A stretch of 64,000 bases of DNA from an uncultured Pelagibacteraceae bacterium (lineage in GTDB: Bacteria; Pseudomonadota; Alphaproteobacteria; Pelagibacterales; Pelagibacteraceae): positions 1-64,000 of the forward strand of contig CACAZW010000003.1 in the NCBI GenBank assembly GCA_902537055.1. Reading direction: 5' to 3'. Below are positions 23,868-29,869 of this stretch, piece after piece. The translations under genes and the position numbers were made by a program. Every line of letters begins with the position of its first letter. The stretch's first letter is position 1. Under the pieces are notes generated by a model that was not told the origin of the DNA, made no database searches, and worked only from the letters and a program-made list of their open reading frames with translations.

Positions 23868-23931
23868 TAGCTAATATTATGGAAATATGATGTAAATATT
23901 TAATAATTATTTGGATTTATTTTAATGAAAT

Positions 23932-24288
23932 GCCAGATAAACTATAAGCCGGGTTCTGTCTTTTAAACTTATCATTTATCTAGGCTTCAAATCACTTTAA
24001 AGCTCAAGCAACTAACCCTGATGACTAGCCAAAGACTGCTTTTAGTTATTACTAACAATGTCATCTCTACTCAGTCTTGCTCCCAGTGGGGTTTTCCATG
24101 CGCTAGCTGTTACCAACTTAGCCGGTGTGCTCTTACCACACCTTTTCACCCTTGCCTTGATAAGGCGGTTTATTTTCTGTGGCACTATCCCTAGGGTCTC
24201 CCCCGCCAGCTGTTAACTGGCACTGTGTCTTTGTAGAGCCCGGACTTTCCTCTTTAATAAATTAAAGCGATAAGTCATTTATCTGGCT
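23932..24288 (-). ncRNA. rnpB: RNase P RNA (bacterial type A)
   Basis: Minus strand carries GAGGAAAGTCCGGGCTC, AGGGTGAAAAGGTGTGGTAAGAGCACACCGG and ACAGAACCCGGCTTATAG. Terminal P1 helix GCCAGATAAA/TTTATCTGGC. Confidence 0.97.
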
Positions 24289-27628: not shown

Positions 27629-27705
27629 TGGTGGGCCCGCCAGGACTCGAACCTGGGACCAATACATTATGAGTGTACTGCTCTAACCAACTGAGCTACA
27701 GGCCC
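27629..27705 (-). tRNA. tRNA with CAU anticodon (likely Ile2/lysidine type; Met not excluded)
   Basis: Minus: GGGCCTG TA GCTC AGTTGGTTA GAGC A GTACA CTCATAA TGTAT TGGTC CCAGG TTCGAGT CCTGG CGGGCCC A CCA. Complete cloverleaf with encoded CCA. Confidence 0.95.
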
Positions 27706-27706
27706 T
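27666..27706 (+). repeat. 41-bp direct repeat, left copy (within intact tRNA)
   Basis: attatgagtgtactgctctaaccaactgagctacaggccct; identical copy at 29695..29735. Confidence 0.97.
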
Positions 27707-27808
27707 TAAAATTGAGTCAATGTTTACTTTAGTTTTTAGAGTCTTGCAAGTCAGTAAACACAAACTGCAGATTGAATATGTTGGATCTGTGGGCATATGT
27801 TTATGGAT

Positions 27809-27832
27809 CGGTTGGTAAAACGGTTGGTAAAA
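27809..27832 (+). repeat. Tandem CGGTTGGTAAAA x2 (candidate integrase arm-type sites, left)
   Basis: Two perfect adjacent 12-mers; the 18-mer ATGGATCGGTTGGTAAAA (27803..27820) recurs at 29573..29590. Confidence 0.8.
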
Positions 27833-27913
27833 AGATTCACAACCTAGATGTGAAAAATCACAAATCATAATTTTTAATTCATAAAGCTTTCATTAACGAA
27901 AGGACGAAAAACT

Positions 27914-28162
27914 ATGAATGATATAACAAAGAAAATTCGGAACTATAGCCGAAGACAACCAATAACAGATAAGCGTTTTAAATTCTCAAATGATCTCCTG
28001 GCAAGAGCTGCATATGTTGGGAATGGAAAGAGTGCAGATAAGAGATTTGATACTTCAACGGAGGGCCTTTCAATGTGGATTTCTCCCTTTGGAATCAAGA
28101 CTTTCAATGCTTTTAGAGTCTTCAATTTTGATTTTTATATGATAGTTGTTTATAAAAATTAA
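27914..28162 (+). pseudogene. ORF resembling the N-terminal arm-binding domain of a tyrosine recombinase, truncated
   Basis: KRFDTSTEGLSMWISPFGIKTFNAFRV fits the usual FDT..GLs..i.P.G.KtF..r pattern of integrase N-termini; preceded by an AAAGGACG-like RBS. No core/catalytic domain follows. Confidence 0.55.
28102..28130 (+). repeat. 29-bp direct repeat, left copy
   Basis: tttcaatgcttttagagtcttcaattttg, identical to 29480..29508; a 13-bp core tttttagagtctt also occurs at 27733..27745. Confidence 0.95.
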
Positions 28163-28167
28163 TATTA

Positions 28168-29304
28168 ATGTCAAAACATATATGCCGCTTTTGTAATTCA
28201 GGAAAAATATCATCAAGACTTTTATTTGATAATTTTCCATTAGCACCTCAATCAACAAAGAATCCTCGTTTCGAAAATTTTGATTTTCTTATAGGTATTT
28301 GTGATGAATGCTTTTTAATCCAACAATTAAGTGAAGTGCCCTCTGAAATATTATATAGAGAATTTAAAAATGACGTTGTGGGTGAAAAATTAAATAATCA
28401 AAAATTATCATTTTTCAAATATATTACACATTACCTTAAAAAAAATATGACTGTTTTAGAAATGGGTGCTGGGAACGGTTTTGTAGTTAATAAGCTTGCT
28501 GAGTTAAATAAATCGATTAGATTTATAGCTAACGATTACAATTTAAATATCAAAAATGAATCCTCAAATATCGTCATGCTGGAAGGAGACATTCATGACT
28601 ATGAGTTTGATGATATAGATATTTTTTTTTCTTCTCACGTATTCGAACATATTGCTGATCCCACGTACCATTTAAAAAAAATCAAGAGAATGTTGAAAAT
28701 AGATGGGTTGTATATAATGGCAATTCCATTGTTCCAAAGTTGGATAAAAAAACTTAATCTTAATTCATTCACAACTGAACATTTAATCTATCCGTTTGAA
28801 GATGATTTGATTGCATTTTTCAATAACATGGGATTTGAGAAGGTTTCTTCAGAAGTCTACTTAGATCACTCACTTTTTATTTGTTTCAAGAAATTAGACA
28901 GCTCTCCAAAACCTATCTTAGCAAAATCTAAGCAGAGCTATTTGGATAATTTTTCAAAAAATTTAGACGATTTATCCAATCTTCTGCTGAACATTAGTAG
29001 CAAGCACAAAAAAATTGTGTTGTGGGGCGCCAATACTTCAAGCCAGCTACTACTAAACATTATGAATAAAATTGATAATTTAGAATGTTCTTTTGCAGTG
29101 GTAGATAATTCAAAATTAAAAATTAATGGCTATTTGTTTGGCACTGATATTAAAATTGATCAACCAGATATTATCACCACACTCAGTCAAAAAGATGCTG
29201 TAGTAATTATGGTCGGTACATTTGATGATGAGATTAAAAGGCAATGTGCTTTAATTAATCCTAATGTGAAAATTTATGACAAGTCTTTTATCTGTAGCGA
29301 TTAA
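28168..29304 (+). CDS. Class I SAM-dependent methyltransferase, sugar C-methyltransferase-like
   Basis: N-terminal zinc-binding CRFC...CDEC, SAM motif VLEMGAGNGFVVNKLAE, SSHVFEHIADPTYHLKKIKRMLK, and C-terminal nucleotide-binding-like region VLWGANTSSQLLLN. Confidence 0.88.
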   Translation: MSKHICRFCNSGKISSRLLFDNFPLAPQSTKNPRFENFDFLIGICDECFLIQQLSEVPSEILYREFKNDVVGEKLNNQKLSFFKYITHYLKKNMTVLEMGAGNGFVVNKLAELNKSIRFIANDYNLNIKNESSNIVMLEGDIHDYEFDDIDIFFSSHVFEHIADPTYHLKKIKRMLKIDGLYIMAIPLFQSWIKKLNLNSFTTEHLIYPFEDDLIAFFNNMGFEKVSSEVYLDHSLFICFKKLDSSPKPILAKSKQSYLDNFSKNLDDLSNLLLNISSKHKKIVLWGANTSSQLLLNIMNKIDNLECSFAVVDNSKLKINGYLFGTDIKIDQPDIITTLSQKDAVVIMVGTFDDEIKRQCALINPNVKIYDKSFICSD

Positions 29305-29479
29305 TAAGACTCATTGGAAATAAAGTTCTTTAGCCAACTTGACTCTATAAATAAGTAGTGTCAGATGATACAGGTTTTAGATTTTATGTAAGATGATTAA
29401 ATTAGGCCCGCGTAAGTCCGTTTAAACGATATGTTTGAGTCAGTTTGGGAGTCAAAAGTTGTTTCAAAAACCCGAGTCT

Positions 29480-29508
29480 TTTCAATGCTTTTAGAGTCTT
29501 CAATTTTG
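29480..29508 (+). repeat. 29-bp direct repeat, right copy
   Basis: Identical to 28102..28130. Confidence 0.95.
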
Positions 29509-29578
29509 TATTTATGATCCCGCTCCATTGTTGAATTTTCTTGATCTTATTTGACTTATTAAACAATTCAGAATGGAT

Positions 29579-29612
29579 CGGTTGGTAAAAGGTTGGCAAT
29601 AAGTTGGTAAAG
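29579..29612 (+). repeat. GGTTGGTAAAA-type repeats x3 (candidate integrase arm-type sites, right)
   Basis: CGGTTGGTAAAA / GGTTGGCAATA / AGTTGGTAAAG; GTTGG starts at 29581, 29592 and 29603 (11-bp period). Confidence 0.7.
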
Positions 29613-29651
29613 AAAGAAGTAAAATATTTATTGAAATAAGCTTTGGTAATG

Positions 29652-29670
29652 CTAACTTATTTAAAGTTAG
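29652..29670. repeat. Perfect inverted repeat CTAACTT-ATTTA-AAGTTAG
   Basis: 7-bp stem, 5-nt loop, between the right arm-type repeats and the tRNA fragment. Confidence 0.7.
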
Positions 29671-29694
29671 AAAGCAGAATTAGAAGTGTGATTA

Positions 29695-29735
29695 ATTATG
29701 AGTGTACTGCTCTAACCAACTGAGCTACAGGCCCT
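29695..29735 (-). pseudogene. tRNA(CAU) 5'-half fragment (att-like duplicate)
   Basis: Identical over 41 bp to the 5' half through the anticodon loop of the tRNA at 27629..27705; the 3' half is absent. Confidence 0.95.
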
Positions 29736-29749
29736 AAATAAAAGAATTA

Positions 29750-29776
29750 ATTATAACATTTTTTTTAAGTTAGCAA
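29750..29776 (-). promoter_or_regulatory. Possible orphaned tRNA promoter
   Basis: Minus: TTGCTA, 15-nt spacer, perfect TATAAT (29755..29750), about 15 nt upstream of the tRNA 5'-half fragment. Confidence 0.4.
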
Positions 29777-29794
29777 TTGAAGATAATTTAGTAT

Positions 29795-29869
29795 TGGTGG
29801 GCCGTGTTGGTTACGCTCCAACTACCCCTGCAATGTCAATGCAGTACTCTACTATTGAGCTAACGGCCC
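29795..29869 (-). tRNA. tRNA-Val (GAC), atypical D- and T-loops
   Basis: Minus: GGGCCGT TA GCTC AATAGTA GAGT A CTGCA TTGACAT TGCAG GGGTA GTTGG AGCGTAA CCAAC ACGGCCC A CCA. All stems pair (one G-U) and CCA is encoded. Confidence 0.85.

What the first reader, a model, noticed from the sequence alone, without database searches (positions are those of the whole stretch)
27629..29735. Compact tRNA-bounded island with paired arm-like repeats but no integrase catalytic domain
Seen: 41-bp perfect direct repeats (27666-27706, 29695-29735), with GGTTGGTAAAA-type repeats just inside both ends (2x left, 3x right). Between them lie an ORF resembling only an integrase arm-binding N-terminus and one methyltransferase gene. 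Established: tyrosine recombinases often integrate at tRNA genes and bind short arm-type direct repeats near att sites. Inference: this is either a decayed integrative element or a minimal non-autonomous one (att plus arm sites plus cargo) mobilised in trans. The short arm-binding protein could act as a regulator or competitor of a full integrase.
Basis: partly seen in the sequence, partly recalled or inferred. Interest (0 to 1): 0.8.

Follow-up and report, generated by a model that had tools for sequence, protein, structure and literature searches.

The report
Integrase-less mobile island in SAR11
A 2-kb piece of DNA inserted at one transfer-RNA gene of an ocean bacterium (SAR11) belongs to a previously unnoticed family of small mobile islands that carry the docking sites for an integration enzyme but not the enzyme, and that in other members ferry anti-virus defence genes between species.

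Summary
Observation confirmed. The 41-bp repeats (27666-27706, 29695-29735) are the anticodon loop plus 5' half of a tRNA(CAU). The island lies on the 5' side of that gene. Arm repeats sit inside both ends, an 82-codon ORF matches only the N-terminus of a SAR11 integrase family (HMM E=1.7e-5; tblastn E=2.5e-8), and one C-methyltransferase is the cargo. Empty sites exist: in 18 of 36 relatives examined tRNA(CAU) is 51-67 nt from tRNA-Val. The surprise is that it is not a lone relic. At least 31 SAR11 genomes carry islands at this site; 20 show both ends (22 islands, 1.2-13.8 kb), most with the same geometry: att, 133/143 bp, arm pair at 12-bp spacing, cargo, arm pair at 11-bp spacing, 94 bp, att. 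None encodes an integrase, and one carrier's single-contig genome has no arm-binding integrase at all. Cargo is often restriction-modification or Mza-type defence genes. Island DNA is more alike between hosts than the flanks (79 of 89 pairs). Best reading: non-autonomous elements moved in trans by a related integrase; the window copy is a deletion derivative retaining the int start. The helper was not found; movement is inferred, not shown. New variant of a known kind (CIME-like hitchers).

The parts
27629..27705 (-). intact tRNA(CAU): 3' half from the chromosome, 5' half supplied by the island
   Evidence: ARAGORN, Rfam
27666..27706 (.). att copy inside the tRNA: anticodon loop plus 5' half
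   Evidence: exact 41-bp repeat; same 40 bp bounds the family
27707..27808 (.). left end between tRNA and arms; position of the replacement tRNA promoter (inferred)
   Evidence: left ends of 27 relatives align and share a promoter-like block; the strict promoter scan did not call one here
27809..27832 (+). left arm pair, CGGTTGGTAAAA x2, 12-bp spacing
   Evidence: same spacing in relatives
27914..28162 (+). 82-aa ORF, 5' remnant of an integrase gene (arm-binding-like N-terminus only)
28102..28135 (+). left copy of 34-bp direct repeat flanking the cargo gene
28168..29304 (+). cargo: 378-aa SAM-dependent C-methyltransferase
   Evidence: PF13847/PF08241 and PF08484 over the cut-off, PF08421 below it; one distant homologue in 250 genus genomes
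29480..29513 (+). right copy of the 34-bp direct repeat
29580..29611 (+). right arms: GTTGGTAAA, imperfect GTTGGCAA, GTTGGTAAA at 11-bp spacing
29695..29735 (.). distal att copy: displaced 5' half of tRNA(CAU)
29736..29794 (-). original upstream region of tRNA(CAU), left behind beyond the distal att
   Evidence: aligns with the tRNA(CAU)/tRNA-Val gap of 18 empty sites
29795..29869 (-). tRNA-Val(GAC), flank of the empty site

Best explanation
The island is one member of a family of non-autonomous integrative elements of SAR11. Shown: each is bounded by the anticodon loop plus 5' half of tRNA(CAU) at both ends, has a direct-repeat arm pair inside each end at near-fixed distance, and encodes no integrase. 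Inferred: a tyrosine integrase of the 490-510-aa SAR11 family (here seen at tRNA-Thr and at the lpd gene) is supplied in trans by an incoming or resident helper. It binds the arms, cuts in the tRNA anticodon-loop core, and excises or inserts the island. On insertion the island gives the tRNA a new 5' half and probably a new promoter; the old 5' half and old upstream region stay at the far end. Cargo, often restriction-modification or other defence genes, rides along. The window copy descends from an integrase-bearing element of this kind that lost int beyond about codon 70 and carries a C-methyltransferase in its place.
For: Two-ended islands in 20 genomes, most with left arms 133/143 bp from att and right arm pair about 94 bp from the distal att, in islands of 1.2-13.8 kb. 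All SAR11 arm-pair hits in genome contigs trace to this site, while 7 hits in unrelated taxa have no att. Empty sites in 18 of 36 relatives. Tandem arrays sharing att copies (G401, G411). No integrase-family match in any island, and no PF00589 match in any island of the carrier genomes. Shared island DNA is more similar than the flanks in 79 of 89 host pairs, median +10 points; G385/G407 are 96% over 3.1 kb against 69% in flanks. Autonomous relatives in G615, G560 and G187 put int next to the tRNA on its 5' side; G615 duplicates the matching anticodon-loop-to-5'-end segment of tRNA-Thr, with an arm-like repeat about 95 bp before the far att. G036 carries TTGGTA-core arm pairs at both ends. ORF82 matches that integrase family's N-terminus and holds the int position.
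Against: No helper integrase with GTTGGTAAA arms or this att was found in about 400 genus and 347 family genomes, in 50,697 phages or in IMG/VR. No excised circle has been seen. Integrases of the candidate family are rare (about 7 loci). Left-end DNA similarity between window and G036 is only modest (score 40; shuffles 25.8, sd 4.5, max 51.5). Host pairs in the transfer test are not independent and flanks may include other islands. The window copy itself may be immobile.
Confidence: 0.66

Rival explanations
1. Fossils only: autonomous integrase elements inserted long ago, lost int, and the remaining islands no longer move; differences arise by deletion and ordinary recombination.
For: The window copy has a truncated int. 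14 of 36 relatives have islands at the site without intact arms and att. No helper found.
Against: Arms, spacing and both att copies stay near-perfect in 20 genomes while the cargo turns over completely. Independent decay would not preserve geometry with no int in any of more than 30 islands. Near-identical cargo occurs in divergent hosts.
Confidence: 0.2
2. Islands move by homologous recombination of incoming DNA, using the conserved tRNA and left/right end sequences, with no site-specific recombinase.
For: Ends are conserved enough to recombine. SAR11 recombines readily (own knowledge).
Against: Does not explain conserved arm pairs with set spacing, two exact att copies, tandem arrays joined at att, or the matching layout of integrase-bearing elements at tRNA-Thr.
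Confidence: 0.1
3. A resident chromosomal tyrosine recombinase (about 317-325 aa, widespread in the genus) moves the islands.
For: It is the only PF00589 protein in the 99%-complete single-contig carrier G385 and is present in most carriers.
Against: By inspection of its sequence it starts directly with a core-binding region and has no arm-binding N-terminus, so arms would be unused. It is also present in G036 and G122, which have no arm-pair match.
Confidence: 0.08
4. The 82-aa protein is a functional arm-site binding protein that regulates or competes with a helper integrase.
For: Intact reading frame beside the arms; matches the integrase N-terminus.
Against: Unique to this copy among more than 30 islands. 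A single-sequence fold was uninformative (pLDDT 57.6).
Confidence: 0.07

Closest known systems
CIME (cis-mobilizable element), PMC5704250
   Same: att-flanked island that lacks its own integrase; tandem accretion at one site
   Different: CIMEs are described as decayed ICEs or IMEs; no conjugation gene was recognised here, the family is broad with fast cargo turnover, and arm sites are kept at both ends
tRNA genomic islands (Islander type, PMC4383910)
   Same: tRNA split and regenerated, displaced fragment marks the far end, empty sites known
   Different: no integrase inside; the element lies on the 5' side of the tRNA and carries the 5' half
CALIN cassette arrays (PMC11389934)
   Same: recombination-site-bounded cargo that depends on an integrase encoded elsewhere
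   Different: tRNA att plus arm-type direct repeats rather than attC sites
Tycheposons (as cited in PMC10872708 and PMC11389934)
   Same: tRNA-associated cargo elements in streamlined marine bacteria; tRNA-Met among their sites
   Different: those carry a tyrosine recombinase; these do not
Phage satellites (PICI, PICMI, PMC10803314)
   Same: compact islands; related integrase-bearing SAR11 elements carry a DNA polymerase and terminase small subunit
   Different: no packaging or integrase genes recognised in the CAU islands

Membership tests
tRNA-integrated genomic island | regenerated tRNA plus displaced fragment bounding the element | tested here: met
tRNA-integrated genomic island | empty site in relatives | tested here: met
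   18 of 36 relatives
tRNA-integrated genomic island | integrase gene inside the element | tested here: not met
CIME | retains attL and attR, lacks integration genes | tested here: met
CIME | tandem accretion with elements of the same specificity | tested here: met
   relatives G401 and G411 only; the window copy is single
CIME | derived from a conjugative or mobilizable element | tested here: inconclusive
   cluster representatives scanned show no conjugation families, but not every ORF was scanned; the int remnant points to satellite-like elements
Tycheposon | tyrosine recombinase in the element | tested here: not met
Phage satellite | packaging in helper-phage particles | not testable with these tools
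   arms and att absent from IMG/VR and att absent from phage records, which does not exclude packaging
Tyrosine integrase (ORF82) | homologous N-terminal domain | tested here: met
   E=1.7e-5 HMM, E=2.5e-8 tblastn
Tyrosine integrase (ORF82) | catalytic domain with active-site tyrosine | tested here: not met
   82 aa, ends before the catalytic domain

The most novel reading that the evidence does not exclude
SAR11 shares a community-wide pool of integrase-free, att-and-arm-bounded cassettes at one tRNA gene, shuttled by a helper integrase from satellite-like elements or phages, serving as its main vehicle for exchanging restriction-modification and other defence genes.
Probability: 0.4. Interest if true: 0.8.

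Novelty: new variant of a known kind. Interest (0 to 1): 0.64.

Why it matters
SAR11 is among the most abundant bacteria in the sea and its genomes are streamlined, so how it gains anti-phage genes is an open question. A defined site, defined ends and defined arm sites turn that into a testable system: any SAR11 genome can be scored for empty, occupied and tandem sites, and a candidate integrase family is named. It is also a clear case of mobile islands that seem to persist as a whole family without encoding their own recombinase.

Tried and rejected
Phage origin: ORF82, two full integrases and three island module proteins against 50,697 phages gave no SAR11 phage hit; the only integrase hit was a weak Mannheimia phage match. 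IMG/VR scans for both arm pairs and a 36-nt att core gave 0; integrase scans gave no confirmed relative. Phage tRNA matches are ordinary phage tRNA genes. Integrase at tRNA-Leu in carrier G407 (425 aa) as helper: its arm repeat is TGTAAGAGT, not GTTGGTAAA, so rejected. Weak ORF82 hits in G068, G139, G171, G150 and G297 lie in frames encoding ordinary proteins and are chance. Strict promoter scan gave no excess. Literature searches found no description of these islands in the open-access library; papers outside it were not searched. One call was sent with a faulty reference and returned nothing.

Full report
Check. The repeat is the anticodon loop and 5' half of tRNA(CAU), so the island sits upstream of the tRNA and supplies its 5' half. 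ARAGORN names the tRNA Met; whether it is elongator Met or the lysidine-type Ile(CAU) was not resolved.

Empty site. In 101 genus genomes nearly all have this tRNA. Of 36 loci examined, 18 have tRNA(CAU) 51-67 nt from tRNA-Val, 14 have 0.2-5.4 kb between them and 4 run off a contig. The 59 nt right of the window's distal att align with that empty gap, including its promoter-like TTG...TATAAT block. Insertion therefore left the old upstream region behind.

Family. A pattern built from the left arm pair (two mismatches allowed) hits 16 of 399 genus genomes, the window's own among them. At two mismatches the reversed control pattern also gives about a dozen single hits, so the weight rests on the att context, not on the pattern alone. 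An exact scan of 85,462 species genomes adds 14 SAR11 genomes and 7 hits in unrelated taxa without att. G046, with a right end only, makes 31. With fetched flanks the anatomy is near constant: att, 133 or 143 bp, arm pair at 12 bp, cargo, arm pair at 11 bp, 94 bp, att. Some members (G241, G406, G412, the second island of G401, the first island of G411) have an imperfect or differently spaced pair. Twenty genomes show both ends (22 islands); G401 and G411 hold two in tandem sharing an att copy. Left and right ends align across the family. The window copy differs by about one helical turn in arm distance and has a third, imperfect right arm.

Content. No gene is common to all. Frequent are C5 DNA methyltransferases (26 proteins in 16 islands), with HNH nuclease, Z1 ATPase (PADLOC MzaC), GHKL ATPase, DUF4420, MTaX1 and PD-(D/E)XK proteins. 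Small conserved proteins of unknown role recur (112 aa in 15 islands; 62-130 aa in 14). Shared island DNA exceeds flank identity in 79 of 89 host pairs; pairs are not independent, so the p-value there should not be taken at face value.

Integrase. None of the islands matches a five-member integrase profile; the only match outside the integrase loci is the window ORF. Among carriers, PF00589 hits are mostly one 307-325-aa chromosomal recombinase each, none inside an island; several incomplete carriers have no hit, and G407 has an extra 426-aa integrase elsewhere. G385, a single contig at 99% completeness, has only the chromosomal protein.

Candidate helper family. Integrases of 487-514 aa occur at the lpd gene (G036, G122) and at tRNA-Thr (G187, G615, G560), plus a partial one in G529. 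At tRNA-Thr the integrase gene is next to the tRNA on its 5' side; in G615 the duplicated att is again anticodon loop to 5' end, with an arm-like repeat about 95 bp before the far copy. G036 has TTGGTA-core arm pairs at both ends and encodes a DNA polymerase and terminase small subunit. The window ORF occupies the same place as int. Taken together this supports trans mobilisation by a related enzyme, but no integrase with these arms at this tRNA was found.

Verdict. Ordinary in principle (integrase-less att-bounded islands are known as CIMEs) but a new, widespread family with unusual uniformity and defence cargo. Mobility and the helper remain inferred.

Noticed in passing
window 28102-28135 and 29480-29513: 34-bp direct repeat (94% identical) flanking the methyltransferase; the left copy lies in the int remnant. 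A possible footprint of how the cargo entered.
   Followed up: partly
L094 (G036), L095 (G122): About 8.8-kb element at the 3' end of lpd with an integrase; in G036 also a family-A DNA polymerase and terminase small subunit. Looks like a phage satellite of SAR11.
   Followed up: partly
L193 (G615), L187 (G187), L194 (G560): About 8.2-kb integrase and helicase-primase elements at the 5' half of tRNA-Thr(TGT); both ends seen in G615 and G560.
   Followed up: partly
L196 (G407), L197 (G122): Element at tRNA-Leu(CAA) with a 425-aa integrase and a resolvase-like ORF; in G407 a TTTGTGTAAGAGTAGTGTAAGAGT repeat recurs 4.9 kb apart.
   Followed up: partly
L170, L081, L168 and other islands: Recurring small proteins (112 aa; 62-130 aa; 146 aa; PD-(D/E)XK 259-301 aa) of unknown role, in a similar strand layout in many islands.
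   Followed up: partly
window 23929-24286: Class A RNase P RNA gene, minus strand.
   Followed up: no
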